This document shows positions 20,101-64,000 of a stretch of 64,000 bases of DNA, one piece after another. Origin of the DNA: Daphnia pulex (Eukaryota; Arthropoda; Branchiopoda; Diplostraca; Daphniidae). The notes under the pieces were generated by a model that did not search any database, was not told the DNA's origin, and worked only from the letters and a program-made list of their open reading frames with translations. The DNA lies in assembly GCF_021134715.1 (NCBI RefSeq), contig NC_060021.1:310001-374000 (forward strand), written 5' to 3'. The translations under genes and the position numbers were made by a program. Numbering within the stretch: position 1 is the stretch's first letter; every line of letters begins with the position of its first letter.

Positions 20101-20664
20101 TCAAGACGAATTCAAGATCTCTACCTCAAGACAAGCTTTGCCGATTGGATAGAAATTGTTTTTGAACAGTTGCAGCTTATAGACTTGATTTACTTCCAAG
20201 GCAGACACGTAAATTCTGACGGAGCCGACCGTGAACGTCTTTAAACCCAATTTCGATGACTTTTTCAGTTTAATTGTTATTAGGCTCGCTTCCGGATTGA
20301 GAGTCTTGATGGGAAAGTCTTGATTCCATTCCGGCTGGCTGCTGCGGATCGTTTTGGTTTTGCTGACTTTCTTGTTGTTCTTGTCCTGTTCGCGAATCTT
20401 GCCGTCCCATTCCTGGACCCGCGTGGAAACCGAAAGGTAATATTTGTCAGAATCCTTTTCCTTGGCTTCTGGAAGGTTTACTCCTCTCAGAACTCTGACA
20501 TTGAAATGCTTTGGTGTCTGGTTTCCTGTGTTGCAATCAGACTTTTCGGGATTTGGGGGCAATGAATGGGGATCTCCAGGATTTTCACGGAATTGATATT
20601 TTTGTAGAAGTGACCACGGATAGAGGAGTTCTTGTGGAATTTTCTCATCTGATAGATTTGCCAT
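20101..20664 (-). CDS. Small single-C2-domain protein (unit B)
   Basis: A 187-residue paralog of the gene at 9044-9607. The C2 domain is nearly the same. The N-terminal linker differs (YQFRENPGDPHSLPPNPEKS then DCNTGNQTPKHF, where copy A has ECEEGDQTPKYF). The 3' flank has lost about 41 bases right after the stop. It lies at the outer edge of the palindrome's left arm; only its first codons pair with the right arm. Confidence 0.85.
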   Translation of the reverse strand: MANLSDEKIPQELLYPWSLLQKYQFRENPGDPHSLPPNPEKSDCNTGNQTPKHFNVRVLRGVNLPEAKEKDSDKYYLSVSTRVQEWDGKIREQDKNNKKVSKTKTIRSSQPEWNQDFPIKTLNPEASLITIKLKKSSKLGLKTFTVGSVRIYVSALEVNQVYKLQLFKNNFYPIGKACLEVEILNSS

Positions 20665-20728
20665 GGCTACTTCTTCAGTTAATTTTATTCGTCAAGCCTT
20701 GAAAATGGAAATCACAGACTAAAAGACG

Positions 20729-20763
20729 ATATAACTGCAGACCAACTGTCAACCCCCTTTATA
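20729..20763 (-). promoter_or_regulatory. TATA box and initiator of the small C2 gene (unit B)
   Basis: TATAAAG at 20757-20763 with the same downstream initiator as in unit A. Confidence 0.65.
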
Positions 20764-20972
20764 CCTTCGGAACAGATTGTTGACGCGGCAGCTATTGGAA
20801 AGTCACTTTTTGTTAGGCATTTCATAATTTAGAATAGCCAAATCTTGTTATTTTGATTGAATTCCAATTTATTTAAATATTTCGAAAAATGTTCAAAAAG
20901 AAATTTTGTTTAATTCTATTATCTTTATTTTTCCCCTTTATTTTGGCCGGTCTTAAAGTAATTATCTCTGCA

Positions 20973-22407
20973 CGGGTTTCGTGCAAATTTTATTTGTATT
21001 TTTATCTTGAATGTGGTAGGGGGGCTCAGTGTAACTTGTTGAGATGACAATCAATAATTAGATACGTAAATAATCCCATTCATTTTTGATTTGTTTGTTT
21101 AATCAGGATCAGAGGAGAGCTGGAAAGGGGTCGATTGTTTTTTCTATCGATATCTTTAGAAAATGAAAGTGTCGTCTGCTTTCAATTTGTTGAAAGTTTC
21201 AGTGATTCATTTTTTAAGTTTTGGAGAAAAGTCAGAAGACTAAAGAGAGATGAAGTATGATTTCAAAGCAATTGAAACGATATGTGGCTGCACGAAAAAT
21301 AGCAGTTCACATCAAATTACAAAAAAATGTGTTCGTCGAGTAAACTTTGTGTCGTGGCTCTTTAATAGAATCGCCTAAATCACACTCCATGCTTTTTAGC
21401 GGGTAAATAAGATAAAGTTTACATAAAAGAATGTTTATGGGAGCTTAAGTAAAACAGTTAAGCCTGTTACAAAGTTGAGAAATGTATTTCCTGTGACTAG
21501 CCTTTAACTGCATTTAACTAGCATTCGTGATGTAAGCCTTCTGTCAATGCATGGCAGTTTGTTCGCACTGTCTAACCTTTTTCTTTCAAGTGCAGATTTG
21601 AGTACTGAACCATGCACAGCCATCGTGACAACAAGATATTCCAGTTTTGCTTCTGCTGGATCTGTCATCTCAGCAACAACCTCAGCATCATCATTTGGGT
21701 AAATGACTTTCAATACTTTTATTCCTGTGACTTGCCAGTTAATGTTTCATTTTCAACTTTGCCTTACTTGTTGTCCAAATATTTTTCGTGACTAAATTTT
21801 TATTTTTGATTTAGATAAACAAACAGCATCCCTGTTGATTGGAGATTCTACCTGATGGCCGAGTTATGTATCTCTTCCTTAACGTCCCACTTTCTTAAAA
21901 TGTCCTCGTGTACACTTCATGTGAATGTGGGTGTATTCACGAGGACCCCCTTTTCTCCCTATCCCGACTGGTGAATTCAACTTTTCAGCGGATGGATGGA
22001 GCACTTGTGGAAGGATACCTGGCTGAATTTAACAAGTTCAAAAGTAGGAAAAACATTTATCTCTATTCTTCCTATTTGAGTATTGAGTGGGCGTTGATTA
22101 TGAATCGTTACCGAGTACTATTACTCCTGATCTATATGCGGTTATTGACTGGAACTGTTATCTCTTGCCGTTTTCGTCGACTCGTTCAGGGTTCATTAAA
22201 CAGCTCAAAGGACGACTACAGATCAGACATTTTTTTTCCCCCAAAATATTTCAAACTTGAATTGTTTGCGCTGCACTGATGATCCGCAATCGATCGGTCG
22301 TTAGTTTTTTCGTTTGAACAGGAAAGAGATGAGACACAAATATCTACAGCACAATGGGACTTTTGGTGCCATTGTGGTACGGTACGGATCATCCACACTA
22401 GATTTTT
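20973..22407. repeat. Diverged partial third copy (C) of the tandem unit
   Basis: The stretch matches unit A 1-1617 with many substitutions and small indels. It then departs at the shared text just after the 'cactaga' near 22400: A continues into a T-rich tract, while C continues into the palindrome-arm sequence. C therefore looks like the older locus, and A and B like later derivatives joined to other sequence. Confidence 0.9.
21577..21724 (-). CDS. Conserved possible internal exon (unit C copy)
   Basis: A diverged copy of the exon at 606-750. It keeps the acceptor, donor and reading frame and has gained one codon (KSALERKR instead of KSAQRKR). Its neighbourhood is the older form of the locus, so this may be the ancestral version. 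Identity unknown. Confidence 0.42.
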
Positions 22408-25400
22408 TCTGAATTTCCACCATCTAAAATCTCTGCCAACGTTTTGTACATAGATAAAAGCAAAACGTGAATGCCAACCCCCTGTAAAATGAATGCGATG
22501 GAGAAGAAATGCCATCTGTTGCTTGGCTACCGTCGTCTTATAGATCGAGCGATTTGGACAAGTGGTTTTGGGGTCCCCAGATTTCTTGTTTAAAAGAATA
22601 ATCCAACGGCAGCAGCAGCTCCTTGGCGCACATGCAACGGGTGCATGTGCGTGTCACCAATTGGCCCAATAGGCAACACAACGACGAGGGGACTCGGGAG
22701 AAATTCCGATTGCATTAGAGAGAGAGAGAGCGACTTGTTATTATTCGTTGGCTGGCCGCTGCTGGTTGGCGTGTCTGTGTGTGTTTGTCCGTTTTGTTCT
22801 TTTGATTCCTTTTACGTGCACCGGAGTTGCGGGTTTTTCTGGTGTGCCGTTGTTGGTCGGTCGGTTGGTTGGGCCATTTTGTTTCTCTGCTGCTGTTTCT
22901 TTCTGCTGTGAATAATGCGATCGAGTTGAACACATGTTAGCATACAAACAACTAGCCCTTTTTCTCTTTTCTTTTCTTTCTTTTCTTTTTCTTTTCTTTT
23001 TCTTTTATATTGGCTGGTTGTGGCTGCGATCCGTCCGCTACAGCTGCCCGCTTCTACGCTGCCTCATGTTTAGATTAATGACAGGCCAGTCAGGCCACAC
23101 AGCATCGGCTTGCCAGCAGTTGAACTCGCCGGGGTTCAAGAGGTCGGACCTCACAGCACCAACACCCAAAAAAGAAGCTTTTCAAGTCCCGAGGCTGTGC
23201 TGAATAAATGGAGACATTGATCAAGAGAGTCTCGGCTGTTGTGTATGGAGCAGCCCATGGATGATGCAGCAAAACGTCTTTGTCTGGCCACACATTGCCC
23301 AGTGATTTTGACTCTGCTGTGGCCGTCTATCACTTATAATATTCTTTTGGCTGGCGTTGTTGGCTGTGTGTGTGTGTGTGGGAGCCTCTGATGTTTTTTC
23401 CGAGGGGGGAGCGCCGTTCTTATATTTAGTTAGCTTTACAAAATATGAATGTGCGGTGTATACTCCCCTCCTTGTGCTATGGGTTTTAATTTTCCAACAA
23501 TCAACACGGAATGAAATGGAATCAAACATCAGGAATGGCCAGCCAAAGAGAGGGAAAAAAACAAATAGCTGTCGAGAGTTTGGCTGGGCAACACCTTGAG
23601 TCAATTTGTTCGTTCCTTTTTTTATTTTATTATAAGAACCAAGACGCAAACATTTCAGGAGAAGAAAACAAACAATTGGGACGAACTTGACGGACATTCA
23701 CGACTGACATAACCACAAATGCGACCGTCGTCATTTCGTTTGTCGTTTATTTTTTTATTTTTATGGTCCAAGTCCAAATTGGCACGTTAATTTCCACACA
23801 CTTGATTGTCCCATTATTTCGTTGAATCGACACTGCCTAGATCTATTTAGCCATTGACAGTTTCATATATAAACAATGGCAACCGTATAGCGATTGGGCC
23901 AATTTTTTTTTTTCTAAATGGGAAACCACTGGACTTTCTTCGGGGCTGGACTTTCAGCTATGGGCTTTCTGTTGGAATTTTTGGGTTTTCTTTTTTGGGC
24001 GGCCAGCAGCACTATGTGGTGGATAGGCGACGATGGCAAATTTTTTTTCTTCTTTTTTCCGTTGCTTTTTTCCAGGTGTGTGCCCGGCGCCCCGGTGGAA
24101 TCTAATTGACCGACGGGCGATCCATCCAATAATAATTTTACATTTTCTATATCCCCCCCCTCCCCACTACTCTCTCTCTTTTCTCTTTCTTGCGCCATTT
24201 TAGTTGAGATCCACGAGTCCGATACGGCACATACAAATATGTGTGTCCATTGCGTCACATCTGACAACTGCGCACGAGTCGATGCGTTCAACTCCCGAGG
24301 GTCTAATTAAAGTGACACATGTGAAGATGTTGCAGACCCAAATTCAGACCAAATAGGCAACAACACGAAATAGCCTAACAGTTTAGACAATTTCCAAATG
24401 GGAATCTCTCTCGTCTCCATGGACAAACAATACGTAAATCTTTTTCTTTCTTTTTCTTTCTTTCTATTTCTTTCTTTATGCACATTCCCGGATAAGTAGA
24501 ATACGCCACCGCCGTCCGGGTATTTAAATCGCATCGTATATAAACAGGAAGAAGAAAAGGCTCCTAAAACAAAAGGAAAGTATTTCCGAGTATATCTGCT
24601 GTGTTATGGGCATTCCGTTGTGGATCTACCCCGAGCACGTCTGAATGCCGATCAAAAGAGAGAAAAAGTCGAAAATGTTTCAGGCACGACAACTGGGCGC
24701 AACATTAAAAACGGGAAATAAAATTAATGAGTTTTTCTCTGCTCCTGCTGGATGGAGCTCCTTTTTGTTTTAACTACAGGCTCAACAGTCTTATCGGTGG
24801 GATTCCTCTTGTTCCTCTTACCCTCTTTGCGAAATAGAGAGAAAAGCAAACAAAATAACAAGCTGTCGCGTGTGTGGATGTAGGGAGGACGGACTTGTTG
24901 GTGCTGTGTCCTTATGATCGTTGGCGGCGTTGGCGGACTATAGAGATGGTCTGTGCGCGGGTTTGTCCGTTCCCTCCTTGTTTATTCATCCGAGTGAGAC
25001 AAATGACATACAAACAGCAGCAGCAGAAGAGCTCACAGTCGAGAACATGAGAATATGAAAAAAGGCCAAGTCTCCTGAGACGGGGGGAGAATAAGAAGAG
25101 CCGAGGTCTTTTTAGCCACCCTCCCAAAAAGAAGAAGAAGTTGATCATCCACAAGAGTTTTCTCTCTTAAGTAAGTCCTTCTTTGTTTTGACTGGGGAGA
25201 TATGGGAGGCCGAGGTACTGGAACGAGAGACAAACCAAAAAAGGGCCAGCAGACGAATTGAGAGGCGGCTGTGCGTTGGCCATCAAACGACAACCGGAAG
25301 GAAGTGACCCTGTCCAGTTAGCGCTAAAAAAGAAAACCCACAATCTTTTTTCTTTGTGATTTTTCCCTCAGTCAAGTCAAAGAAAAAAGAATAGACAGCG

Positions 25401-26239
25401 GCGCAAACAGCGTCGAAATGTCTCGCGGGAGACAAACACAGGCGCGGATGTCTTGTAGCTTCCGAAAATGGACTTAACAGTCACGTCAGTTGTTCTACTT
25501 TTGTGTGTGTGTATTGGGCCAATACAGTCCAAAGTACTTTACTCTTTTCCTCCTTTTTTCAGACTTTTTCTCTTGTGGGGGTCGAACAAAGGCAGGATAC
25601 ATCATCTGGCTGCTGCTGCTATGCATAACCCAAAAGCAGACGCCGATGCAAAACCTTAAAGAAATAATAAAAGACGACGAGTATAGTCATATAGAGGGGG
25701 GAAAAACGTGACGCATTTCGGTGGCGGTGGCATTTCATTCTTCTCTCCCCCCTCCTCTTCTTGTGTTCCTTGTGCCGAGTCGCCGACCGTCGCCACCGCC
25801 GCCGATCTGAAAAGGAGTGGCACAGATGCCATCAAGTTCGCCGAGGTTATCTTCTTTTCTTTCGACGCCATAGACTCCCCAGTAATCCACCCCCCACTCC
25901 CGTGTATATACCTCATCACACTACTACACCCTATACTTCTCTTAAGCTGTTGTCGTACGCTCTTTTTATCAGCTGCCATCCACTTGGCTGCCGTCGCCAC
26001 CGCCGCCGCCGCCAACATATCGATCAGCGTCTTGTTTCTTTTTTCGCGGGGGGTTTTCATCAACTGATTTTGAATTGACCGCCACCGTCGAAATACCTTT
26101 TTTCAATTGCCAAGTACAATTTAGGAATTTCTTTTCTATTCTTTTTTCATTTATTGAATAGCAACAGAATTAAAAAGGCAATGTATCAACGGAATTTTAA
26201 AGAATGGTCATTTTTGAAGCGCTTCAATTTCAATTTTTT
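22408..26239. other. Gene-poor stretch of the left arm with pyrimidine-rich simple repeats
   Basis: No gene is supported. The stretch has CTTTT/CTTTC runs near 22968-23005 and 24438-24478, a GT run near 23367-23382, long T tracts, and GC-rich CCGCC runs near 25790-26010. TATATAAA occurs near 23869 and 24537. Several open frames of 80-135 codons exist, but they are low-complexity and overlap on both strands. It might be an intron or a regulatory region. The mirrored stretch is about 57389-61220. Confidence 0.5.
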
Positions 26240-26865
26240 TCCGCAATCAATATTCCACTCTTTGTTGGCAATAACAAAAATCTGTTTTTCATTAAATTGA
26301 GAAAAACGAAAAATTAGTTTAAAAGCTATTAAAACAATACCTGTCAACTATGACTTGGTTGATTATTCGACCATTAAATCATTTTTCAAAAATATCACAC
26401 CAAAAGATTTCTGCCAGAAAATCGAGACGTAAATAGAACGCGTACAGCAAATTTTTATTGACGTGACGTTAAATTTTGATTTAATTGTTAATGCACTGCC
26501 GAATTCCGTTATTATTACGACGTGGTATGGAAAAAGAAACCATCAATTTAGAAAGGTGATCTGCTGTTATTTGAGGAGTTGCCACTTTTGGAAAGGGTCG
26601 CATGGGTATTCTATGGAAATCATGATATCATCATGCACGCTTGCAAATTTGCAATGCAACTATTTCTAGTTCTCTGATACACATTCCCCCCCCCCCACAT
26701 AGCCCATGCTAATACTTTTCCCAATAGAGACGGCATTGAATTGGTTGAGCCAATTACAGAGCAACACGTCGATAAAGAACTGTGCTACCTGATCTTTTGA
26801 CTCCACCCAGCACAATCGCCTCGATTGGGCTACAACTCACATTTTTTTTAGTGAATAGTATTCTG

Positions 26866-27575
26866 GTGGCTTCGGTCTTGAAAGGTAAGAATTCCAATGC
26901 TAATAAAATATACTGTTTGCGCTTATTGGGTTTACTGTTTTAAAAGGGTTTAAACAAACTGAAGGTTTGTAACCTTCAGTCGAAAACCCAAAATTTTGGT
27001 TTATTCATTTACTTATACCCTACGTTAAATTGCTAAACAATCGCCTGTGATACGAAAAAGAATCCCACCTTAATCTATCGTTTTGTTTTTATAATAACAT
27101 TTCAGAACGTTAGGCCTTACTACATTACCGGTATTCTTGGCATTAGTACAACTGCTGTCGGCCAGCTTTTCATCTCCAGTTGACCTCGGCGCTTAAAATG
27201 AAGCTTTCGAAAAGAAAAGAAATTGGTTGAATGGCACTTGAAAAACATAGACAATCATCAACGAGAACATAAATGTTATGTTGGGAGTAGAAAAGAGAAT
27301 CGATCCCGTTCGAGGACGTCTTCCTAACTGGAATGTGTTAAAAAAGGGGAACAGCCTAGGTCAAGAAGCAATATTCTACACAGGCACTCACAGGTTTTTA
27401 TTTTATTTTCTATCCATCAATCCCCAAAATAACTATTTAATTTTCTTGTAAAAACATTATTATTTATTTTTGTCTCAAGTGTCTTTTATCGTCCTCTGCC
27501 AACCGTTCCGCCTCCGTGTGATTTGCGAAAATTCGTCGGGTGGCCGACCGACAATCAATCAAAGACAATAAAGAA
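26866..27575 (+). pseudogene. Broken copy of the GT31 galactosyltransferase gene (left arm)
   Basis: The sequence aligns in pieces to the intact gene at 28694-30388. The short first exon is present, but its ATG reads GTG (26866). Its donor (AAAG/GTAAG) is kept. The start of exon 2 (AACGTT ... GTACAACTGCTGTCGGCCAGC) is followed directly by sequence from the end of exon 2 (ATCCCGTTCGAGGACGT ... GGCACTCACAG). Nearly all of the catalytic part is therefore missing. A piece of the last exon follows at about 27482-27550 and stops short. It is non-functional. Confidence 0.85.
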
Positions 27576-27792
27576 GACAGTCAGCACCTGTGCGTGCTTG
27601 TGTAGAATATTGCTTCTTGACTTTGGCTTTTTCCCTTTTTTTACACATTCCAGTTAGGAAGACGTCCTCGAACGGGATCGATTCTCTTTTCTACTCCCAA
27701 CATAACATTTATGTTTTCGTTGATGATTCTATGTATTTTTCAAGTGCCTTTCGACGATTTTCTTTTCTTTTCGAAAGCTTCATTTTACGCGC
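27190..27792. repeat. Local inverted repeat of about 205 bases around the GT31 remnant (left arm)
   Basis: Bases 27190-27395 and 27586-27792 are imperfect reverse complements; both contain gaatcgatcccgttcgagga or its complement. They enclose about 190 bases with the last-exon remnant. The inverted copy includes part of the GT31 coding sequence, so the inversion happened after that gene copy broke. Confidence 0.9.
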
Positions 27793-28693
27793 TCTTGTTT
27801 CCCCCCCCCCCCCCATTTCTCTATGAAGAGCACTTTGCTATTTCAACATCAGTATTTTTGGCCGGTCATCGATAATTCCAAGGAGATGATTTTTTGTTTC
27901 ACTGTGTTCATCGGATTTGTTTTTTCTCTTTTGGGAGATCATGTGGAGATGACATATACAGATTTGAAATTATTTGATTCCTTTTTATTCTTGGTGAAAC
28001 AAACGCAATTGAATGTAGATACGGTGGCTCCATTCATTCATTGAATGGATGACATCACCACAGGATTCCACTTGCATATTGACAATAACAAAAATCTGTT
28101 TTTCATTTAATTGAGAAAAACGAATAGGTAATTAATTAAAAAGCTATTAAATACCCGCCAACTATGACTTGGTTGATTACTCGACCAATAAATTATTTTT
28201 CAAAAATTTCACGCATAATGATTTCTGCAAAAAATTCGAAACGTAAATAGAACGCGTATTACAGCAAATTTTTATTGACGTTAAATTTTGATTTATTGTA
28301 ATACTCAACATGTATTCAGAAAAAGTAAAGTGCTGAATACTGTTGTTATTATACGACGCGGTCTGAAAAAGAAACCAACAATTTAGAAAGGTGATCTGCT
28401 GTTATTTGAGCAGTTGCCAATTCTGGAAAAGGTCGTATGAGTATTGTGTGGAAATCATGATATCATCATGCAAGCTTGCAAAACACATCCCCCACATAGC
28501 CCATGCTAATACTTTTCCCAATAGAGACGGCATTGAATTGGTTGAGCCAATTACAGAGCAACACGTTGATAAAGAACTATAGGCTACCTGATCTTTTGAC
28601 TCCACCCCACACCTGTGCAATGACGCAATCTGTACATGAATCGAATCGAATTGGGCTACAACTCACATTATTATTTTAGTTAAAAGTATTGTG

Positions 28694-30388
28694 ATGGCAT
28701 CGTTCTTGAAAGGTAAGAAAAGAATCCCAATGCTAATAAAATATACTGTTTTCGTTTTTTGGGGGGTTTACAAATACTGTTAAAAAGGTTTCTCCATTGC
28801 CAAACAATCGCCTGTTATGCGTAATAGAATTCCACCTTAATATAGTTTTGTTTTTCAAATAACATTCCAGAACGTTTTATTGATAGAAGAAACATGATTG
28901 GTAAATTCATTTTTGTATCGTTATGCCTAACTGTATTCGTACAACTGCTGTTGGCCAGCGGTTCATCTACATGCAAAGAACAAATTCCTGCTGTCGGACA
29001 AAAGTTGTTTGGGCTCGGGTGTCATAATGAGAAAAAACGAATCGATCAACTTGTTGGAACTATCGATGCCTTAAAAAAGGTCCCGGCCAAAGACACTATT
29101 GCTGATGTGGAAAATTCTCTTCGTAGAGAAAGAGCAAATAATCAAGAGCTTCAAGTTTTGGTACAGAAATTAATTAAAAAATTAGAATTGTGCGACGACA
29201 AACGTAAAATGTTTAATAACTACGTGCTAGAGTCTTTTTTACGCAATTCGCCTTTTTCTGGAGTAGACAATTACACTCGGTACACAGTGGCTCGATTGGG
29301 GATGTTGCCAATCAAAAATGCCAAACCTTTGATACCCAAATTCGGAACAGTCATCAACGACGTTCTTTCTTTTCGATATCCCATCAACATTCCGTCGTGT
29401 CCAGCAGCAGAAATAACAAATAACACTTGGTCGAACCCAAGTGTTTTCATAGCGATTATATCGGCTCCGGAACATTTCAAAGAGCGAAATAACATCAGAG
29501 AAACTTGGCTGATACACCTCAAAAGTGCCCTGGAAAAAAATCTGCTGGGCATTAGCACCCGATTCGGTTTCTTTCTCGGTCAGACTCGAAACGATTCGAT
29601 TCAAAAGCGAATCGAAGAAGAGAATCAGAAACACGGGGACATCGTCCAAATCGAAATGGACGATTCGTACCACAATTTGACGCTGAAAGGCATCGCCATG
29701 CTCAACTGGGTGCGGCAACAATGCGCCAGCAAGGTCGACCTCGTTTTCAAAGTGGACGACGACGTCTACGTAAACGTGCACAATCTCGTTCATTTCGTCC
29801 GGTCCAACTATCAATCGAACAACAGTTTGTTTGGCTACGGCAATTTCGGCTTCTACCCAATCAGGATGGAGCTGGGATACGCGAAAGACTACGCCAAATG
29901 GGACATGACTTTCAAAGAGTATCCGTGGAGTCATTATCCCAATTACGTCAACGGTCCGGCCTATTTCATGCACTCAAGCGTCGTTATTCCGTTATTGGCT
30001 GCCAGTCAGACCACTCCTTTGATCCCGTTCGAGGACGTTTTCCTGACCGGAATGTGCACGGAAAAAGCCGGTGTCAAGATGCGATATTCCGCAGGCACTC
30101 ACAGGTTTTTATTTTCTATCTATCAATCCCCAAAATGACTATTCCATTTTCTTGTATTTAAACATTATTTATTTTCTATCCATCAGTGTCTTTTATCGTC
30201 CTCTGCCAACCGCTCCGCCGCCGTGTGATTTGCGAAAATTCGTCGGGTGGCCGACCGACAATCAATTCGTCACCCACTCGGCCGTCGACGATTTTTATCG
30301 GAACAAGACCCAGTGCGTCGTCACCGAATCGGATGGAACCAAAAAGACAATCGACTTCACCGCCCCCGTTGTCTTCAAGTTCACTTAG
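28694..30388 (+). CDS. Beta-1,3-galactosyltransferase-like enzyme, GT31 family (left arm)
   Basis: Three exons read by eye: 28694-28712, 28871-30104 and 30187-30388, all with GT/AG borders, giving 484 residues. The 19-base first exon adds MASFLKERFIDRRN before the hydrophobic segment FIFVSLCLTVFVQLLLA (about residues 19-35). That gives the type II membrane layout usual for Golgi glycosyltransferases. GT31 motifs follow in order: IRETW (about 214), HGDIVQ with DSYHNLTLK (about 262-278), KVDDDVYVN (metal- and UDP-binding DDD at about 302-304), YPNYVNGPAYF, and EDVFLTG (about 394). The last exon ends TAPVVFKFT. Members transfer galactose or a related sugar from a UDP donor; the acceptor cannot be told. 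A broken copy lies just upstream. Confidence 0.9.
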
Positions 30389-30714
30389 TCTGTTAGACAA
30401 GACAATGAAGACAAGATTAAATCCCTTTTGGAAATAACGCTGAAAAATCGACATACATTGGCCTAATATATTAGCAACAACAATTCGGCGCTTGATTTAA
30501 ACTAACATTATTAATCATTTGTCATGTACAAGAGAACACTAATAGTAAAATAGACTTGCTTTATCCGGTATTAATTGTTGTTCATTATTTTATTTTTAAC
30601 ATCCTGGGCGATCCTGGGGTCAGGGGTGCAAGTCTATCTCAGTCGTACGCTCTTTTTATCAGCTGCGATCCAAATATTTTAAATAATTTTCAAAAATTTA
30701 TTTGTATGCGAGTA

Positions 30715-34313: not shown

Positions 34314-34342
34314 GGCTTAAGAGGAGGGGTGAGAAAAAATTG

Positions 34343-49189: not shown

Positions 49190-49250
49190 GATTGCAAACT
49201 GTTATTACGACGAAATATGGAGTTATTGCCGTGTCGGAGATGCTCACTCG

Positions 49251-49285: not shown

Positions 49286-49314
49286 CAATTTTTTCTCACC
49301 CCTCCTCTTAAGCC

Positions 49315-53239: not shown

Positions 53240-54934
53240 CTAAGTGAACTTGAAGACAACGGGGGCGGTGAAGTCGATTGTCTTTTTGGTTCCATCCGAT
53301 TCGGTGACGACGCACTGGGTCTTGTTCCGATAAAAATCGTCGACGGCCGAGTGGGTGACGAATTGATTGTCGGTCGGCCACCCGACGAATTTTCGCAAAT
53401 CACACGGCGGCGGAGCGGTTGGCAGAGGACGATAAAAGACACTGATGGATAGAAAATAAATAATGTTTAAATACAAGAAAATGGAATAGTCATTTTGGGG
53501 ATTGATAGATAGAAAATAAAAACCTGTGAGTGCCTGCGGAATATCGCATCTTGACACCGGCTTTTTCCGTGCACATTCCGGTCAGGAAAACGTCCTCGAA
53601 CGGGATCAAAGGAGTGGTCTGACTGGCAGCCAATAACGGAATAACGACGCTTGAGTGCATGAAATAGGCCGGACCGTTGACGTAATTGGGATAATGACTC
53701 CACGGATACTCTTTGAAAGTCATGTCCCATTTGGCGTAGTCTTTCGCGTATCCCAGCTCCATCCTGATTGGGTAGAAGCCGAAATTGCCGTAGCCAAACA
53801 AACTGTTGTTCGATTGATAGTTGGACCGGACGAAATGAACGAGATTGTGCACGTTTACGTAGACGTCGTCGTCCACTTTGAAAACGAGGTCGACCTTGCT
53901 GGCGCATTGTTGCCGCACCCAGTTGAGCATGGCGATGCCTTTCAGCGTCAAATTGTGGTACGAATCGTCCATTTCGATTTGGACGATGTCCCCGTGTTTC
54001 TGATTCTCTTCTTCGATTCGCTTTTGAATCGAATCGTTTCGAGTCTGACCGAGAAAGAAACCGAATCGGGTGCTAATGCCCAGCAGATTTTTTTCCAGGG
54101 CACTTTTGAGGTGTATCAGCCAAGTTTCTCTGATGTTATTTCGCTCTTTGAAATGTTCCGGAGCCGATATAATCGCTATGAAAACACTTGGGTTCGACCA
54201 AGTGTTATTTGTTATTTCTGCTGCTGGACACGACGGAATGTTGATGGGATATCGAAAAGAAAGAACGTCGTTGATGACTGTTCCGAATTTGGGTATCAAA
54301 GGTTTCGCATTTTTGATTGGCAACATCCCCAATCGAGCCACTGTGTACCGAGTGTAATTGTCTACTCCAGAAAAAGGCGAATTGCGTAAAAAAGACTCTA
54401 GCACGTAGTTATTAAACATTTTACGTTTGTCGTCGCACAATTCTAATTTTTTAATTAATTTCTGTACCAAAACTTGAAGCTCTTGATTATTTGCTCTTTC
54501 TCTACGAAGAGAATTTTCCACATCAGCAATAGTGTCTTTGGCCGGGACCTTTTTTAAGGCATCGATAGTTCCAACAAGTTGATCGATTCGTTTTTTCTCA
54601 TTATGACACCCGAGCCCAAACAACTTTTGTCCGACAGCAGGAATTTGTTCTTTGCATGTAGATGAACCGCTGGCCAACAGCAGTTGTACGAATACAGTTA
54701 GGCATAACGATACAAAAATGAATTTACCAATCATGTTTCTTCTATCAATAAAACGTTCTGGAATGTTATTTGAAAAACAAAACTATATTAAGGTGGAATT
54801 CTATTACGCATAACAGGCGATTGTTTGGCAATGGAGAAACCTTTTTAACAGTATTTGTAAACCCCCCAAAAAACGAAAACAGTATATTTTATTAGCATTG
54901 GGATTCTTTTCTTACCTTTCAAGAACGATGCCAT
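53240..54934 (-). CDS. Beta-1,3-galactosyltransferase-like enzyme, GT31 family (right arm)
   Basis: The mirror copy of the gene at 28694-30388, with exons 54916-54934, 54757-53524 and 53441-53240. The protein is the same. The one base difference I found (near 54306; GCG for GCC, both Ala) is silent. Both arms thus carry an intact gene of 484 codons with all GT31 motifs. Confidence 0.9.
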
Positions 54935-55835
54935 CACAATACTTTTAACTAAAATAATAATGTGAGTTGTAGCCCAATTCGATTCGATTCATGTACAGAT
55001 TGCGTCATTGCACAGGTGTGGGGTGGAGTCAAAAGATCAGGTAGCCTATAGTTCTTTATCAACGTGTTGCTCTGTAATTGGCTCAACCAATTCAATGCCG
55101 TCTCTATTGGGAAAAGTATTAGCATGGGCTATGTGGGGGATGTGTTTTGCAAGCTTGCATGATGATATCATGATTTCCACACAATACTCATACGACCTTT
55201 TCCAGAATTGGCAACTGCTCAAATAACAGCAGATCACCTTTCTAAATTGTTGGTTTCTTTTTCAGACCGCGTCGTATAATAACAACAGTATTCAGCACTT
55301 TACTTTTTCTGAATACATGTTGAGTATTACAATAAATCAAAATTTAACGTCAATAAAAATTTGCTGTAATACGCGTTCTATTTACGTTTCGAATTTTTTG
55401 CAGAAATCATTATGCGTGAAATTTTTGAAAAATAATTTATTGGTCGAGTAATCAACCAAGTCATAGTTGGCGGGTATTTAATAGCTTTTTAATTAATTAC
55501 CTATTCGTTTTTCTCAATTAAATGAAAAACAGATTTTTGTTATTGTCAATATGCAAGTGGAATCCTGTGGTGATGTCATCCATTCAATGAATGAATGGAG
55601 CCACCGTATCTACATTCAATTGCGTTTGTTTCACCAAGAATAAAAAGGAATCAAATAATTTCAAATCTGTATATGTCATCTCCACATGATCTCCCAAAAG
55701 AGAAAAAACAAATCCGATGAACACAGTGAAACAAAAAATCATCTCCTTGGAATTATCGATGACCGGCCAAAAATACTGATGTTGAAATAGCAAAGTGCTC
55801 TTCATAGAGAAATGGGGGGGGGGGGGGGAACAAGA

Positions 55836-56438
55836 GCGCGTAAAATGAAGCTTTCGAAAAGAAAAGAAAATCGTCGAAAGGCACTTGAAAAATACATAGA
55901 ATCATCAACGAAAACATAAATGTTATGTTGGGAGTAGAAAAGAGAATCGATCCCGTTCGAGGACGTCTTCCTAACTGGAATGTGTAAAAAAAGGGAAAAA
56001 GCCAAAGTCAAGAAGCAATATTCTACACAAGCACGCACAGGTGCTGACTGTCTTCTTTATTGTCTTTGATTGATTGTCGGTCGGCCACCCGACGAATTTT
56101 CGCAAATCACACGGAGGCGGAACGGTTGGCAGAGGACGATAAAAGACACTTGAGACAAAAATAAATAATAATGTTTTTACAAGAAAATTAAATAGTTATT
56201 TTGGGGATTGATGGATAGAAAATAAAATAAAAACCTGTGAGTGCCTGTGTAGAATATTGCTTCTTGACCTAGGCTGTTCCCCTTTTTTAACACATTCCAG
56301 TTAGGAAGACGTCCTCGAACGGGATCGATTCTCTTTTCTACTCCCAACATAACATTTATGTTCTCGTTGATGATTGTCTATGTTTTTCAAGTGCCATTCA
56401 ACCAATTTCTTTTCTTTTCGAAAGCTTCATTTTAAGCG
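55836..56438. repeat. Local inverted repeat of about 205 bases (right arm)
   Basis: The mirror image of 27190-27792, with arms at 56233-56438 and 55836-56042. Confidence 0.9.
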
Positions 56439-56762
56439 CCGAGGTCAACTGGAGATGAAAAGCTGGCCGACAGCAGTTGTACTAATGCCAAGAATACCGG
56501 TAATGTAGTAAGGCCTAACGTTCTGAAATGTTATTATAAAAACAAAACGATAGATTAAGGTGGGATTCTTTTTCGTATCACAGGCGATTGTTTAGCAATT
56601 TAACGTAGGGTATAAGTAAATGAATAAACCAAAATTTTGGGTTTTCGACTGAAGGTTACAAACCTTCAGTTTGTTTAAACCCTTTTAAAACAGTAAACCC
56701 AATAAGCGCAAACAGTATATTTTATTAGCATTGGAATTCTTACCTTTCAAGACCGAAGCCAC
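56053..56762 (-). pseudogene. Broken copy of the GT31 galactosyltransferase gene (right arm)
   Basis: The mirror image of the pseudogene at 26866-27575, with the same lost start codon and the same internal loss. Confidence 0.85.
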
Positions 56763-59700
56763 CAGAATACTATTCACTAAAAAAAATGTGAGTTGTAGCC
56801 CAATCGAGGCGATTGTGCTGGGTGGAGTCAAAAGATCAGGTAGCACAGTTCTTTATCGACGTGTTGCTCTGTAATTGGCTCAACCAATTCAATGCCGTCT
56901 CTATTGGGAAAAGTATTAGCATGGGCTATGTGGGGGGGGGGGAATGTGTATCAGAGAACTAGAAATAGTTGCATTGCAAATTTGCAAGCGTGCATGATGA
57001 TATCATGATTTCCATAGAATACCCATGCGACCCTTTCCAAAAGTGGCAACTCCTCAAATAACAGCAGATCACCTTTCTAAATTGATGGTTTCTTTTTCCA
57101 TACCACGTCGTAATAATAACGGAATTCGGCAGTGCATTAACAATTAAATCAAAATTTAACGTCACGTCAATAAAAATTTGCTGTACGCGTTCTATTTACG
57201 TCTCGATTTTCTGGCAGAAATCTTTTGGTGTGATATTTTTGAAAAATGATTTAATGGTCGAATAATCAACCAAGTCATAGTTGACAGGTATTGTTTTAAT
57301 AGCTTTTAAACTAATTTTTCGTTTTTCTCAATTTAATGAAAAACAGATTTTTGTTATTGCCAACAAAGAGTGGAATATTGATTGCGGAAAAAAATTGAAA
57401 TTGAAGCGCTTCAAAAATGACCATTCTTTAAAATTCCGTTGATACATTGCCTTTTTAATTCTGTTGCTATTCAATAAATGAAAAAAGAATAGAAAAGAAA
57501 TTCCTAAATTGTACTTGGCAATTGAAAAAAGGTATTTCGACGGTGGCGGTCAATTCAAAATCAGTTGATGAAAACCCCCCGCGAAAAAAGAAACAAGACG
57601 CTGATCGATATGTTGGCGGCGGCGGCGGTGGCGACGGCAGCCAAGTGGATGGCAGCTGATAAAAAGAGCGTACGACAACAGCTTAAGAGAAGTATAGGGT
57701 GTAGTAGTGTGATGAGGTATATACACGGGAGTGGGGGGTGGATTACTGGGGAGTCTATGGCGTCGAAAGAAAAGAAGATAACCTCGGCGAACTTGATGGC
57801 ATCTGTGCCACTCCTTTTCAGATCGGCGGCGGTGGCGACGGTCGGCGACTCGGCACAAGGAACACAAGAAGAGGAGGGGGGAGAGAAGAATGAAATGCCA
57901 CCGCCACCGAAATGCGTCACGTTTTTCCCCCCTCTATATGACTATACTCGTCGTCTTTTATTATTTCTTTAAGGTTTTGCATCGGCGTCTGCTTTTGGGT
58001 TATGCATAGCAGCAGCAGCCAGATGATGTATCCTGCCTTTGTTCGACCCCCACAAGAGAAAAAGTCTGAAAAAAGGAGGAAAAGAGTAAAGTACTTTGGA
58101 CTGTATTGGCCCAATACACACACACAAAAGTAGAACAACTGACGTGACTGTTAAGTCCATTTTCGGAAGCTACAAGACATCCGCGCCTGTGTATGTCTCC
58201 CGCGAGACATTTCGACGCTGTTTGCGCCGCTGTCTATTCTTTTTTCTTTGACTTGACTGAGGGAAAAATCACAAAGAAAAAAGATTGTGGGTTTTCTTTT
58301 TTAGCGCTAACTGGACAGGGTCACTTCCTTCCGGTTGTCGTTTGATGGCCAACGCACAGCCGCCTCTCAATTCGTCTGCTGGCCCTTTTTTGGTTTGTCT
58401 CTCGTTCCAGTACCTCGGCCTCCCATATCTCCCCAGTCAAAACAAAGAAGGACTTACTTAAGAGAGAAAACTCTTGTGGATGATCAACTTCTTCTTCTTT
58501 TTGGGAGGGTGGCTAAAAAGACCTCGGCTCTTCTTATTCTCCCCCCGTCTCAGGAGACTTGGCCTTTTTTCATATTCTCATGTTCTCGACTGTGAGCTCT
58601 TCTGCTGCTGCTGTTTGTATGTCATTTGTCTCACTCGGATGAATAAACAAGGAGGGAACGGACAAACCCGCGCACAGACCATCTCTATAGTCCGCCAACG
58701 CCGCCAACGATCATAAGGACACAGCACCAACAAGTCCGTCCTCCCTACATCCACACACGCGACAGCTTGTTATTTTGTTTGCTTTTCTCTCTATTTCGCA
58801 AAGAGGGTAAGAGGAACAAGAGGAATCCCACCGATAAGACTGTTGAGCCTGTAGTTAAAACAAAAAGGAGCTCCATCCAGCAGGAGCAGAGAAAAACTCA
58901 TTAATTTTATTTCCCGTTTTTAATGTTGCGCCCAGTTGTCGTGCCTGAAACATTTTCGACTTTTTCTCTCTTTTGATCGGCATTCAGACGTGCTCGGGGT
59001 AGATCCACAACGGAATGCCCATAACACAGCAGATATACTCGGAAATACTTTCCTTTTGTTTTAGGAGCCTTTTCTTCTTCCTGTTTATATACGATGCGAT
59101 TTAAATACCCGGACGGCGGTGGCGTATTCTACTTATCCGGGAATGTGCATAAAGAAAGAAATAGAAAGAAAGAAAAAGAAAGAAAAAGATTTACGTATTG
59201 TTTGTCCATGGAGACGAGAGAGATTCCCATTTGGAAATTGTCTAAACTGTTAGGCTATTTCGTGTTGTTGCCTATTTGGTCTGAATTCGGGTCTGCAACA
59301 TCTTCACATGTGTCACTTTAATTAGACCCTCGGGAGTTGAACGCATCGACTCGTGCGCAGTTGTCAGATGTGACGCAATGGACACACATATTTGTGTGTG
59401 CCGTATCGGACTCGTGGATCTCAACTAAAATGGCGCAAGAAAGAGAAAAGAGAGAGAGTAGTGGGGAGGGGGGGGGATATAGAAAATGTAAAATTATTAT
59501 TGGATGGATCGCCCGTCGGTCAATTAGATTCCACCGGGGCGCCGGGCACACACCTGGAAAAAAGCAACGGAAAAAAGAAGAAAAAAAATTTGCCATCGTC
59601 GCCTATCCACCACATAGTGCTGCTGGCCGCCCAAAAAAGAAAACCCAAAAATTCCAACAGAAAGCCCATAGCTGAAAGTCCAGCCCCGAAGAAAGTCCAG

Positions 59701-61220
59701 TGGTTTCCCATTTAGAAAAAAAAAAATTGGCCCAATCGCTATACGGTTGCCATTGTTTATATATGAAACTGTCAATGGCTAAATAGATCTAGGCAGTGTC
59801 GATTCAACGAAATAATGGGACAATCAAGTGTGTGGAAATTAACGTGCCAATTTGGACTTGGACCATAAAAATAAAAAAATAAACGACAAACGAAATGACG
59901 ACGGTCGCATTTGTGGTTATGTCAGTCGTGAATGTCCGTCAAGTTCGTCCCAATTGCTTGTTTTCTTCTCCTGAAATGTTTGCGTCTTGGTTCTTATAAT
60001 AAAATAAAAAAAAGGAACGAACAAATTGACTCAAGGTGTTGCCCAGCCAAACTCTCGACAGCTATTTGTTTTTTTCCCTCTCTTTGGCTGGCCATTCCTG
60101 ATGTTTGATTCCATTTCATTCCGTGTTGATTGTTGGAAAATTAAAACCCACAGCACAAGGAGGGGAGTATACACCGCACATTCATATTTTGTAAAGCTAA
60201 CTAAATATAAGAACGGCGCTCCCCCCTCGGAAAAAACATCAGAGGCTCCCACACACACACCCACAGCCAACAACGCCAGCCAAAAGAATATTATAAGTGA
60301 TAGACGGCCACAGCAGAGTCAAAATCACTGGGCAATGTGTGGCCAGACAAAGACGTTTTGCTGCATCATCCATGGGCTGCTCCATACACAACAGCCGAGA
60401 CTCTCTTGATCAATGTCTCCATTTATTCAGCACAGCCTCGGGACTTGAAAAGCTTCTTTTTTGGGTGTTGGTGCTGTGAGGTCCGACCTCTTGAACCCCG
60501 GCGAGTTCAACTGCTGGCAAGCCGATGCTGTGTGGCCTGACTGGCCTGTCATTAATCTAAACATGAGGCAGCGTAGAAGCGGGCAGCTGTAGCGGACGGA
60601 TCGCAGCCACAACCAGCCAATATAAAAGAAAAAGAAAAGAAAAAGAAAAGAAAGAAAAGAAAAGAGAAAAAGGGCTAGTTGTTTGTATGCTAACATGTGT
60701 TCAACTCGATCGCATTATTCACAGCAGAAAGAAACAGCAGCAGAGAAACAAAATGGCCCAACCAACCGACCGACCAACAACGGCACACCAGAAAAACCCG
60801 CAACTCCGGTGCACGTAAAAGGAATCAAAAGAACAAAACGGACAAACACACAGACACGCCAACCAGCAGCGGCCAGCCAACGAATAATAATAACAAGTCT
60901 CTCTCTTTCTAATGCAATCGGAATTTCTCCCGAGTCCCCTCGTCGTTGTTGCCGGTTGTTGCCTATTGGGCCAATTGGTGACACGCACATGCACCCGTTG
61001 CATGTGCGCCAAGGAGCTGCTGCTGCTGCCGTTGGATTTTTCTTTTAAAAAGAAATCTGAGGACCCCAAAAACCACTTGCCCAAATCGCTCGATCTATAT
61101 AAGACGACGGTAGCCAAGCAACAGATGGCATTTTCTCTCCATTGCATTCATTTTACAGGGGGTTGGCATTCACGTTACCTTTCATCAATACACAAAACGT
61201 TGGCAGAGATTTTAGATGTT

Positions 61221-61929
61221 GGAAATTCAGAAAAAATCTAGTGTGGATGATCCGTACCGTACCACAATGGCACCAAAAGTCCCATTGTGCTGTAGATATT
61301 TGTGTCTCATCTCTTTCCTGTTCAAACGAAAAAACTAACGACCGATCGATTGCGGATCATCAGTGCAGCGCAAACAATTCAGGTTTGAAATATTTTGGGG
61401 GGAAAAAACAAGTCTGATCTGTAGTCGTCCTTTGAGCTGTTTAATGAACCCTGAACGAGTCGACGAAAACGGCAAGAGATAACAGTTCCAGTCAATAACC
61501 GCATATAGATCAGAAATAATCGTACTCGGTAACGATTCATAATCAACGCCCACTCAAGCCTCAAGCCAGAAAGAGGAATAGAGATAAATGTTTTTCCTAC
61601 CTTTGAGCCTGGGAAATTCAGCCAGGCACCACATCCACCAAGATCCAGGAAGTGCTCCATCCATCCGCCGAAAAGTTGAATTCACCAGTCGGGATAGGGA
61701 GAAAAGGGAGTCCTCGTGAATACACCCACATTCACATGAAGTGTACATGAGGACATTTAAAGAAATGGGAGGGAAGGAAGAGATACGTAGCTCGGCCATG
61801 GTTAGAATCTCCAATCAACAGGGATGCTGTTTATCTACTGTAAATCAAAAATAAAAATTGAGTCACGAAAAATATTTAGACAACAAGTAAGGCAAAGTTG
61901 AAAATGACACATTAACTGGCAAGTCACAG
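61221..61929. other. Gene-poor outer right arm, diverged from the left arm
   Basis: Homologous to the C copy at 21725-22407 but with many changes. A minus-strand frame at 61554-61814 (MAELRISSFPPISLNVLMYT) is longer than its counterparts because of indels and is not supported by the other copies. TATATAAG near 61097 has an ATG about 30 bases downstream, but no convincing gene follows. Confidence 0.4.
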
Positions 61930-62068
61930 GAATAAAAGTATTGAAAGTCATTTACCCAAATGATGATGCTGAGGTTGTTGCTGAGATGACAGATCCAGCA
62001 AAACTGGAATATCTTGTTGTCACGATGGCTGTGCATGGTTCAGGACTCAAATCTGCACAGAGAAAAAG
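61930..62068 (+). CDS. Conserved possible internal exon (right-arm copy)
   Basis: The most diverged copy. Acceptor (cacag at 61925-61929) and donor (gt at 62069) are kept and the frame is open. It is two codons shorter, because the Ala-Glu of DPAEAKLEY is missing. The frame runs past the donor to a stop in the text 'attacatcatga'. Confidence 0.42.
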
Positions 62069-62769
62069 GTTAGACAGTGCGAACAAACTGCCATGCATTG
62101 ACAGGAGGATTACATCATGAATGCTATTCAAATGCAGTTACAGGCTAGTCAGAAACTAACTATTCAAAAATTTGTAACAGGCTTAACTGTTTTACTTAAG
62201 CTCCCATGAACATTCTTTTATGTAAACTTTATCTTATTTACCCACTAAAAAGCATGGAGTGTGATTTAGGCGATTCTATTAAAGAGCCACGACACAAAGT
62301 TTACTCGAAGAAACACATTTTTTTGTAATTTGATGTGAACTCACTGCTATTTTTCGTGCAGCCCACGTATCGTTTCATTTAATTTGAAATCTTAAACTTT
62401 GACTCTTTTAGTCTTTTTCGAAACCGAAACTGTTGGTAAACTTGCAACAAAATGACTGAGAGCAGACGACACTAATATTCTAATCAGCTTAAGATATCGA
62501 TAGCAATTGTTAGAAATCGACCTTCTCCTAATCAAACAAACCAATCAAAAAAGATCAAACCTTTTTTCTCAGTTTAGCTCTCGACATCCTCGACAGCTGA
62601 ACGGATTGGGATTATTTTAGTATCTAATAGTTCGTGAACAAGTTACACTGAGCCCCCCTACCATAGTCCAGATAAAAATACAAATACAAATTGGCACGAA
62701 ACCCGTGCAGAGATTATTACTTTAAGACCGACCCAAAATATAGTAATGGAAACGTTTTGTATAATTACG
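62069..62769. other. Outer right arm, non-coding as far as seen
   Basis: Homologous to unit A 1-605, C 20973-21576 and the 'cgggtttcgtgc' boundary (62697-62708, complement). No gene is supported. Confidence 0.4.
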
Positions 62770-63120
62770 TATGTATCATATGGAAACGTTCGTCCTCTTC
62801 TCCGTCGCTGGATGCCTGGATCTGGCCAGGATGACCGATGACCCGGTCGAACGGGATCGACTTAACCTGGTAGGTTCGTAGTCTTCGGACCTTCTTACCG
62901 GTTACCCGTCTGAGATGGGTAGCGACAGCTTGCTTGTGTGTGCTGGCTGTTGACTCCGCTGTACCACTGGGTGATGCTAGAGCTGTTCAGAATGACCGCT
63001 GGACTGAATAACTGGTAAAGGGACTTGCTGTGGTAGTTTTTCCGCCCCTGGACGCGGTAAATGTTGAGCCCAGTTGTGTCGGCGAACGACATGACCGTCA
63101 AAGGTTTTCCGAGCAAATAA
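62770..63120 (-). pseudogene. Decayed coding remnant of unknown identity (right-arm copy)
   Basis: The minus strand reads MSFADTTGLNIYRVQGRKN, then LNSSSITQWYSGVNSQH, corresponding to the remnant at 10629-11057. The first stop of the unit A copy is absent here, but the frame breaks later (QHTQAS instead of QHYFGF). The following IPFDRVI segment is present with an extra insert. Confidence 0.45.
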
Positions 63121-63668
63121 TCCAGATTTTTCCAAATTTAAACCAAATTTGTAATTTAAAGAATTGAATTGAATAGATATTATTCAAATTTTGTACATAT
63201 TTTTTACACCATATTTCATACAACACCACCAGCCGGTATGATGCATGATGCATTCGACTCTATGAGACAACAATCATGAGCTAGTCTCCCAAATCTTCAT
63301 CGTTTATCCGGGAATTAACACAGTTATCGAACTAGGAGGTAAGAGGCTTAATTTTTAATTTATTCATTTTCATGAAAGTTGATATTTTTCGAGCAGCCAT
63401 CTATGAACCATTTTTGAAATAATATTTCGCAACCTTGATTTCGCAACCTCTACAATCTAACCCAAGTCTTGGCCCATCATCTACATTCAAATTGACGTAA
63501 AAAATAAAGATAATAGAATTAAACAAAATTTCTTTTTGAACATTTTTCGAAATATAAAACTAAGTTGGAATTCAATCAAAATAACAAGATTTGGCTATTC
63601 TAAATTATGAAATGCCTAACAAAAAGTGACTTTCCAATAGCTGCCGCGTCAACAATCTGTTCCAAAGG
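63121..63668. other. Upstream region of the right-end C2 gene
   Basis: 63330-63560 matches the complement of A 9840-10060, and the last part matches the small C2 promoter region. Bases about 63121-63330 have no counterpart that I could place. No gene is supported. Confidence 0.4.
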
Positions 63669-63699
63669 TATAAAGGGGGTTGACAGTTGGTCTGCAGTT
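63669..63699 (+). promoter_or_regulatory. TATA box and initiator of the right-end C2 gene
   Basis: TATAAAG at 63669-63675, then TGCAGTTA centred near 63697, the same arrangement as at the other small C2 genes. Confidence 0.65.
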
Positions 63700-63767
63700 A
63701 TATCGTCTTTTAGTCTGTGATTTCCATTTTCAAGGCTTGACGAATAAAATTAACTGAAGAAGTAGCC

Positions 63768-64000
63768 ATGGCAAACCTATCGGATGAGAAAATTCCACAA
63801 GAACTCTATCCGTGGTCACTTCTACAAAAAGTTAGATCAAACTTTGAGTCTCAAACGAAACCATGTTTGAGTGACCAGAGTTTTCTGGTACCATCCAGTC
63901 CAGAACAACCTGATTTGGCGGTAGGCTTACAGGCAGATAATCAATTCCGGCCTGAAGATCTACCGGTATTGCCCCAAATTCCCGAAAAATCTGAACTTCT
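63768..64000 (+). CDS. C2-family gene, 5' part only (runs off the window)
   Basis: Starts MANLSDEKIPQELYPWSLLQ, like the small C2 proteins but one Leu shorter, after a conserved TATA and initiator. After about codon 21 it departs from them and continues open for 77 codons. The later part has PSSPEQPDLAVGLQADNQFR and LPQIPEKSEL, which resemble the linkers of the large protein. It is therefore probably a different, longer family member with more sequence before its first C2 domain. No C2 domain is reached before the window ends. Confidence 0.75.
   Translation, partial: MANLSDEKIPQELYPWSLLQKVRSNFESQTKPCLSDQSFLVPSSPEQPDLAVGLQADNQFRPEDLPVLPQIPEKSEL

What the first reader, a model, noticed from the sequence alone, without database searches (positions are those of the whole stretch)
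20601..63828. Palindrome with arms of about 21 kb and a gene-bearing spacer of about 1.15 kb
Nearly every feature from 20.6 to 41.9 kb reappears in reverse order and orientation from 43.1 to 63.8 kb with a fixed coordinate sum. Long near-identical palindromes are known mainly where gene conversion preserves them (for example sex chromosomes and ampliconic loci) or after recent fold-back amplification. This one carries intact genes in both arms.
Basis: seen in the sequence. Interest (0 to 1): 0.8.

Follow-up and report, generated by a model that had tools for sequence, protein, structure and literature searches.

The report
Fold-back palindrome with duplicated gene arms
A 43-kb stretch of what is probably a water-flea (Daphnia) chromosome reads almost the same on both strands because a block carrying a sugar-transferase gene was copied in mirror image; it matters mainly because the inner part of the mirror belongs to a repeat that forms similar mirror-image loci at many other places in the genome.

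Summary
The palindrome is real in the assembled sequence: arms 20.6-41.9 and 43.1-63.8 kb, spacer 1,155 bp. The core (23.1-41.9 kb) has 15 substitutions in about 17.4 kb aligned, plus one 1.38-kb retroelement-like insert in the left arm; the outer 2.3 kb grades from about 86% to 99% identity. Each arm is composite. The outer 11.4 kb is a chromosome-5 gene block with an intact GT31 glycosyltransferase ORF. The inner 9.5 kb belongs to a dispersed repeat found in mirror-image pairs at 16 loci including the window, and at 5 more through the repeat's outward continuation (lower bounds; many other hits were unpaired). The window palindrome is not simply one of those elements: it holds two copies of the family's centre, and its spacer recurs (1,151 of 1,155 bases) beside a single arm 55 kb away. 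The best reading is a recent fold-back (or sister-fusion) inverted duplication of that arrangement, joined at its far end to the C2-gene array by homologous exchange. Gene conversion between arms is possible but not shown. Read-level proof of the assembly was not available. The dispersed palindrome family is the more surprising part.

The parts
20601..41925 (+). left arm of the palindrome (recent, near-identical part about 22.1/22.8-41.9 kb)
   Evidence: self-BLAST and arm alignment
43081..63830 (-). right arm, mirror of the left; taken here as the older copy because the spacer is continuous with it
   Evidence: continuity with spacer in a single-arm relative
41926..42896 (+). spacer part 1: 971 bp from the start of the 11.1-kb C2-gene unit, joined to the left arm at 41925/41926 with 2 bp (CA) shared
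42897..43080 (-). spacer part 2: the last 184 bp of the right arm's centre element, absent from the left arm
32389..41925 (+). inner arm, left: member of the dispersed inverted-pair repeat family (outer limit not sharp: two other copies match to 31.1-31.6 kb)
43081..51239 (-). inner arm, right: same family, without the 1.38-kb insert
41020..41925 (+). centre element of the family, left copy, truncated
42897..43986 (-). centre element of the family, right copy, complete and partly self-complementary (outer limit by symmetry with 41020)
20936..32388 (+). outer arm, left: chromosome-5 gene block
51240..62743 (-). outer arm, right
28846..30138 (+). GT31 (beta-1,3-galactosyltransferase-like) ORF, left copy
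   Evidence: PF01762 E 1.7e-41; PDB relatives B3GALT5 and B3GNT2
53490..54782 (-). GT31 ORF, right copy; same protein, one synonymous difference
34433..35810 (+). insert in the left arm only: 396-aa ORF with an RNase H match and a below-cut-off zf-RVT match, flanked by about 84-bp target duplications
36707..37975 (+). AIFM1-like exon fragments within the repeat (mirror at 47031-48299); matches seen for 36707-36925 and 37063-37347, the third piece by eye
41981..42562 (+). 193-aa C2-domain ORF in the spacer
1..20931 (-). left flank: 11.1-kb tandem units with 1,644-aa C2-domain ORFs (3208-8142 scanned, 4 C2 stretches; 14308-19242) and 196-aa C2 ORFs (9044-9634 scanned; 20101-20691)
20942..22740 (+). 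transition zone: left arm agrees with the C2-unit relative up to about 22.1 kb, then with the right arm, with scattered differences to 22.74 kb; proposed homologous-exchange junction

Best explanation
A recent inverted duplication. Shown: an arrangement [GT31 block - repeat arm - centre element - C2 unit] exists on the right-hand side (read backwards), and its inner end also exists, at about 99.7-99.8% identity, beside one arm 55 kb upstream. Inferred: a break about 970 bp inside the C2 unit left an end that either folded back and primed synthesis 1,155 nt upstream, or fused with its sister; the block was copied outward in mirror image for about 18 kb. The new copy was then joined to the C2-gene array by homologous exchange in the diverged region now at about 22.1-22.8 kb. 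Since then a retroelement-like insert entered the left arm and about 15 substitutions accumulated between the arms. No function is needed to explain the structure; its effect is a second identical GT31 gene and a stray C2 ORF.
For: The spacer is continuous with the right arm and matches C5:296346-297500, next to a single arm, at 1,151 of 1,155 bases. There are two copies of the centre element, one cut 184 bp short, where the one intact member read directly has one. A and A' agree against the third copy B at 78 of 86 sites variable among the three. At the far end the left arm switches from C2-unit-like to right-arm-like sequence near 22.1 kb. Substitutions outnumber small indels 15 to 2 in the core and 10 of 15 are transitions, as expected of real divergence rather than sequencing error. 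Fold-back priming near inverted repeats, with secondary rearrangements, is an established route in yeast (PMC10622511, abstract and found passages).
Against: Only 2 bp are shared at the junction, which could be chance. B is close to A/A' (11 and 8 differences in about 5.0-5.2 kb) only inward of 36.9 kb; outward it differs by about 2% (4.7% in the outermost 500 bp), so exchange among the three copies has also happened. The left arm still differs from the right by 2.3% between 22.27 and 23.10 kb, and differences are denser at 23.1-26.0 kb (6 in 2.9 kb) than at 26.0-34.4 kb (2 in 8.4 kb), which looks more like conversion wearing off than one clean event. Which arm is older is inferred from the spacer alone.
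Confidence: 0.6

Rival explanations
1. An older palindrome whose arms are kept alike by arm-to-arm gene conversion, as on mammalian sex chromosomes.
For: Identity falls off gradually at the outer end, differences are denser at 23.1-26.0 kb than further in, and the short arm ends of 4 of 5 other family loci compared were identical within the locus while loci differed from each other.
Against: A young duplication predicts nearly the same core identity; the insert was not copied to the right arm; no tract with clear donor and recipient was found; the 4 sites with A=B against A' all lie within 70 bp beside the insert.
Confidence: 0.25
2. Assembly artefact: a fold-back read or two haplotypes joined head to head.
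For: No reads could be examined; fold-back reads exist in long-read data (PMC12870357, found passages), and erroneous scaffolding is a stated source of false palindromes (PMC7953838, found passages).
Against: The arms have different flanks, a one-arm 1.38-kb insert, 15 core substitutions against 2 small indels, and an outer zone at 86-96% per 500 bp; the spacer has a separate, slightly different copy elsewhere; no N in 204 kb. Allelic joining would be expected to give about 1% differences (recalled heterozygosity), not under 0.1%.
Confidence: 0.1
3. The whole 43 kb is one insertion of a giant foldback-like transposon.
For: The inner 9.5 kb of each arm is a dispersed repeat found as mirror pairs at other loci.
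Against: The block 22.3-32.4 kb is near-identical only in these two arms among the listed hits; other matches are mostly 74-92%, apart from a piece of about 150 bp at up to 99%. The centre is not the family's centre.
Confidence: 0.05

Closest known systems
Fold-back (replicative) inverted duplications in yeast and cancer (PMC10622511; abstract and passages)
   Same: Mirror-image copy of one side of a break; secondary rearrangement of the far end.
   Different: Here it stands in an animal genome assembly; the spacer is 1,155 bp and the shared junction bases only 2, whereas the yeast cases described use short nearby inverted repeats.
Gene-bearing palindromes of Folsomia candida and Adineta vaga (PMC5490193, PMC7953838; passages)
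   Same: Inverted duplications with genes in both arms, in invertebrates with parthenogenesis.
   Different: Those are collinear gene blocks, in F. candida with a wide range of Ks; here core divergence is below 0.1%. PMC7953838 names D. pulex among the species it could not test for lack of an annotation.
Foldback-like transposons, e.g. Galileo (PMC4168063; passages)
   Same: Elements made largely of long inverted repeats, scattered in the genome; the longest Galileo copy in D. willistoni has 4,246- and 4,680-bp terminal repeats.
   Different: Applies to the inner-arm family, not to the whole window. Arms here are longer (about 9 kb); no transposase, common terminus or short target duplication was found.
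Mammalian sex-chromosome palindromes (PMC8981503; title and start of abstract in a listing)
   Same: Long arms above 99% identity.
   Different: No sex-chromosome link is known to me (recalled); conversion not demonstrated.

Membership tests
Fold-back / sister-fusion inverted duplication | two inverted arms with an asymmetric centre that belongs to one side | tested here: met
   spacer continuous with right arm and with B; left arm truncated by 184 bp
Fold-back / sister-fusion inverted duplication | short inverted repeat or microhomology at the junction | tested here: inconclusive
   2 bp shared; could be chance
Fold-back / sister-fusion inverted duplication | secondary rearrangement joining the far end | tested here: met
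   left arm switches from C2-unit-like to right-arm-like sequence near 22.1 kb, with residual differences to 22.74 kb
Gene-conversion-maintained palindrome | arm identity above 99% | tested here: met
   99.18% overall; core 15 substitutions
Gene-conversion-maintained palindrome | arms more alike than their age allows, or shared derived changes copied between arms | tested here: inconclusive
   no age anchor; 78 of 86 sites A=A' against B fits both models
Foldback-like DNA transposon (inner-arm family) | long terminal inverted repeats making up most of the element | tested here: met
   16 + 5 loci with mirror pairs by coordinates; C2:404721-405820 self-complementary 96.4%. Many hits unpaired: 14 of 34, 4 of 24, 15 of 29
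Foldback-like DNA transposon (inner-arm family) | common termini with short target-site duplications | tested here: inconclusive
   homology between copies ran past the ends first examined; at C2:4.05 Mb the mirror runs past all sequence fetched; a shared start of hits near C2:4047700 is not shown to be an element end
Foldback-like DNA transposon (inner-arm family) | transposase, own or of a partner element | tested here: inconclusive
   no transposase among the arm ORFs scanned with Pfam; outermost parts not read
Assembly artefact | no reads spanning centre and borders, or half depth | not testable with these tools
   no reads held

The most novel reading that the evidence does not exclude
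The genome carries a dispersed family of giant palindromes (arms up to about 9 kb), about half of those seen lying around a common self-complementary centre of about 0.8-1.1 kb with, in the one centre read, almost no spacer. Arms stay alike within a locus while loci typically differ by 10-20%, and these loci act as seeds from which palindromes grow into flanking single-copy DNA and carry host genes with them, as in this window and perhaps at C2:4.05 Mb, where 100%-identical arms run on past the repeat.
Probability: 0.3. Interest if true: 0.8.

Novelty: new variant of a known kind. Interest (0 to 1): 0.57.

Why it matters
Long palindromes are thought to be unstable (recalled), and conversion-maintained ones are best known from sex chromosomes; whether they matter in organisms with parthenogenesis has been debated, and the survey seen here could not include D. 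pulex (PMC7953838, passages). A family of about twenty such loci, apparently of different ages, in one well-studied, cyclically parthenogenetic genus (organism inferred) would allow palindrome birth, growth, arm homogenisation and decay to be measured with existing mutation-accumulation lines and long reads. The window also shows how a glycosyltransferase gene can be doubled in one step.

Tried and rejected
Rejected: a mobile 185-bp element ending exactly at the arm border; the apparent end was only the end of my query, and a longer query showed a centre element of about 0.8-1.1 kb. Rejected: the window palindrome as an intact family member with an insertion in its centre; it has two centre copies, not one. 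Rejected: an element terminus at 32389 or at C5:286465; other copies continue outward past both. Not settled: a terminus further out. The C2:4.05/4.06 Mb arms are 100% identical for all 1,501 bp fetched on each side; the C1:5.22/5.24 Mb arms match at 94.8% for about 520 bp and then stop. Led nowhere: tRNA scan (0 genes); Pfam on 10 further ORFs of the arms (8 of 10 without a match; the other two weak Pyr_redox matches). Not done: structure prediction, Rfam, viral, phage, plasmid and E. coli collections, other Daphnia genomes (none held).

Limits of counts. The genome search scores only the best candidates, so locus counts are lower bounds. Of the 21 loci, 16 (window included) pair through hits to the window's own arm and 5 (C1:5.23, C2:0.27, C2:4.06, C6:4.59, C10:15.90 Mb) only through the outward continuation of the repeat at B. 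For the orientation count (34, 24 and 29 hits) I merged or dropped further pieces of the same arm, so the zero for ++ and -- is partly by construction; the 27 to 0 contrast of +- against -+ is not. The 27 pairs come from at most 21 loci and are not independent; 14 of 34, 4 of 24 and 15 of 29 hits had no partner within 30 kb. The centre element was listed at 39 loci; 18 of them had no arm hit among the rows typed, so it may also occur alone. In one search L045 and L060 were left out (12 of 13 and 10 of 11 ends used). A further candidate pair, C8:11.082/11.100 Mb, is not counted.

Full report
Source. The window is C5:310001-374000 of an unnamed assembly of 133,188,837 bases in 13 contigs, of which C1-C12 appear in my hits. 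Total size, contig number, window GC of 0.408 and gene content fit Daphnia pulex KAP4; that match is my inference from recall. Two papers give its accession GCF_021134715.1 but no size that I saw (passages); D. obtusa has 12 chromosomes and GC 0.409.

The observation. Aligning the arms gives 164 mismatches in 19,888 columns. The divergence is concentrated outside: 20.6-22.8 kb carries most of it. The core 23.1-41.9 kb has 15 substitutions: 6 in 23,101-26,000, 2 in 26,001-34,430 and 7 in 35,830-41,925, four of these within 51 bp next to the insert. The left arm alone holds a 1.38-kb insert with RNase H and weak zf-RVT matches. Of its 8 other matches in the genome, seven are full or nearly full length (six at 97-100%, one at 90%) and none forms an inverted pair, which serves as a control for the pairing seen below.

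Surroundings. To the left lie 11.1-kb tandem units (starts at C5:296530, 307610, 318710 and a partial one at 329804) with large C2-domain ORFs. To the right, beyond 374 kb, is an inverted, shortened relative of the same unit. A single repeat arm, called B here (C5:288193-296345), is followed by a copy of the palindrome's spacer (4 of 1,155 bases differ) and then by the unit array.

Composition of the arm. The outer 11.4 kb contains the GT31 ORF (PF01762, E 1.7e-41), the same protein in both arms. Its first 1.7 kb has close copies in the C2 units (95-99%). From 22.3 to 32.4 kb the listed matches outside the two arms are mostly 74-92%, apart from a piece of about 150 bp at up to 99%; they lie at 432-442 kb, 1.18-1.25, 2.29 and 2.67 Mb on C5 and on other contigs. 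The inner 9.5 kb matches many places on many contigs. Its outer limit is not sharp: C2:5.05 Mb and C4:81 kb match outward to 31.6 and 31.1 kb. It holds AIFM1-like exon fragments (PDB match E 1.8e-6 and 4e-4) and Tyr-rich repeat stretches, in broken frames.

The dispersed family. Pairing hits by position, 21 loci on C1, C2, C5, C6, C7, C8, C10, C11 and C12 have a plus-strand arm followed by a minus-strand arm with a common midpoint; 16 of them pair through the window's own arm sequence, 5 only through the outward continuation of the repeat at B. Neighbouring hits within 30 kb were +- in 27 cases and -+ in none, while 14 of 34, 4 of 24 and 15 of 29 hits had no partner (see the limits under Tried and rejected). 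Direct reading supports the pairing: C2:404721-405820 is self-complementary over its length (96.4%) with a centre of about 10 bp; C6:4583401-4586971 is self-complementary over 3,571 bp (98.2%); C2:4046640-4048140 and 4062641-4064141 are 100% mirror images. The centre element was seen at the midpoint of 10 other loci (C2 four, C5:87 kb, C7, C10 three, C12) and not, or off-centre, at the remaining 10. Short arm ends compared within a locus were identical in 4 of 5 pairs (281-451 bp); the fifth, C2:12.21/12.23 Mb, was 78%. Between loci the medians were 89% and 81%, with a range of 69 to 99%. The C1 arms fall to 94.8% further out, and the member at C5:85.6-94.6 kb is lopsided with arms about 89% alike. 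Whether the family moves as a transposon is open: no common end with target duplications was reached.

How the window palindrome arose. In the intact member read at its centre (C2:405 kb) the two arms share one centre element. Here there are two: 41020-41925, cut short, and 42897-43986, complete, with 971 bp of C2 unit between them. That is what a fold-back of an arrangement like B, arm - centre - C2 unit, would give. The junction shares 2 bp. At the outer end the left arm agrees with the C2-unit relative up to about 22.1 kb and with the right arm from there on, with further differences to 22.74 kb, which suggests that the copied strand was joined to the array by homologous exchange. Fold-back priming and sister-chromatid fusion cannot be told apart here.

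Age and conversion. If nothing but mutation acted, about 0.09% core divergence and a recalled rate of 2-5e-9 per site per generation give roughly one to two hundred thousand generations. Of 86 sites variable among A, A' and B, 78 have A=A', 4 A=B (all beside the insert) and 4 A'=B. B differs from the arms by about 2% outward of 36.9 kb but by only 11 (A) and 8 (A') sites in some 5.0-5.2 kb inward, and by 4 in the spacer, so exchange between B and the palindrome took place as well. This shows an exchange-prone region; it does not prove arm-to-arm conversion.

Artefact. Different flanks, the one-arm insert, substitutions well in excess of indels, and a separate copy of the spacer argue against a fold-back read or a haplotype join. 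Without reads it cannot be excluded.

Literature. Ten searches were made. In their listings, which are capped (for example 12 of 21 papers with Daphnia and palindromes), I saw no report of long palindromes or foldback transposons in Daphnia; this covers only the held open-access library. Passages were read in PMC10622511, PMC4168063, PMC12102780, PMC12926508, PMC12870357, PMC5490193, PMC7953838 and PMC2884549; no paper was read whole.

Noticed in passing
C2:397-413 kb, 1.465-1.481, 4.046-4.064, 4.65-4.67, 5.04-5.06, 12.21-12.23, 12.885-12.90 Mb; C8:11.02-11.04 Mb; others: Dispersed inverted-pair loci sharing the inner arm of the window palindrome or its outward continuation; where compared, arm ends mostly identical within a locus and diverged between loci.
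   Followed up: partly
C2:4046640-4064141 (L063, L064): Palindrome arms stay 100% identical for about 1 kb beyond the point where other copies begin to match; the outermost 663 bp matched only these two arms, the next 390 bp a few short 75-86% pieces elsewhere.
   Followed up: partly
window 34433-35810: RNase H-bearing element flanked by unusually long (about 84 bp, imperfect) target duplications, with six 97-100% copies of nearly constant length (about 1.29 kb) on other contigs.
   Followed up: partly
window 36707-38890 and mirror: AIFM1-like exon fragments lie between Tyr-rich (YYTT-KAPEYY) repeat fragments inside the dispersed repeat, as if host gene pieces had been captured.
   Followed up: partly
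window 1-20931: 11.1-kb tandem units (98-99% alike) with a 1,644-aa protein carrying four C2 stretches and an N-terminal hydrophobic segment; over a 1.46-kb piece two of three copies are exactly identical.
   Followed up: partly
C5:288193-297502: Copy B is a mosaic against the palindrome: about 2% different outward of window-equivalent 36.9 kb and about 0.2% inward, with 4 differences in the 1,155-bp spacer.
   Followed up: yes
C5:85617-94620: Lopsided, decayed member of the family with arms about 89% alike.
   Followed up: partly
C4:214 kb and C4:394 kb (L055, L056): Two copies of the family's outer end, 98.6% alike, about 180 kb apart and in the same orientation.
   Followed up: no
C8:11081691-11100488: Two short inverted matches to the outermost repeat piece 18 kb apart, a possible further palindromic locus.
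   Followed up: no
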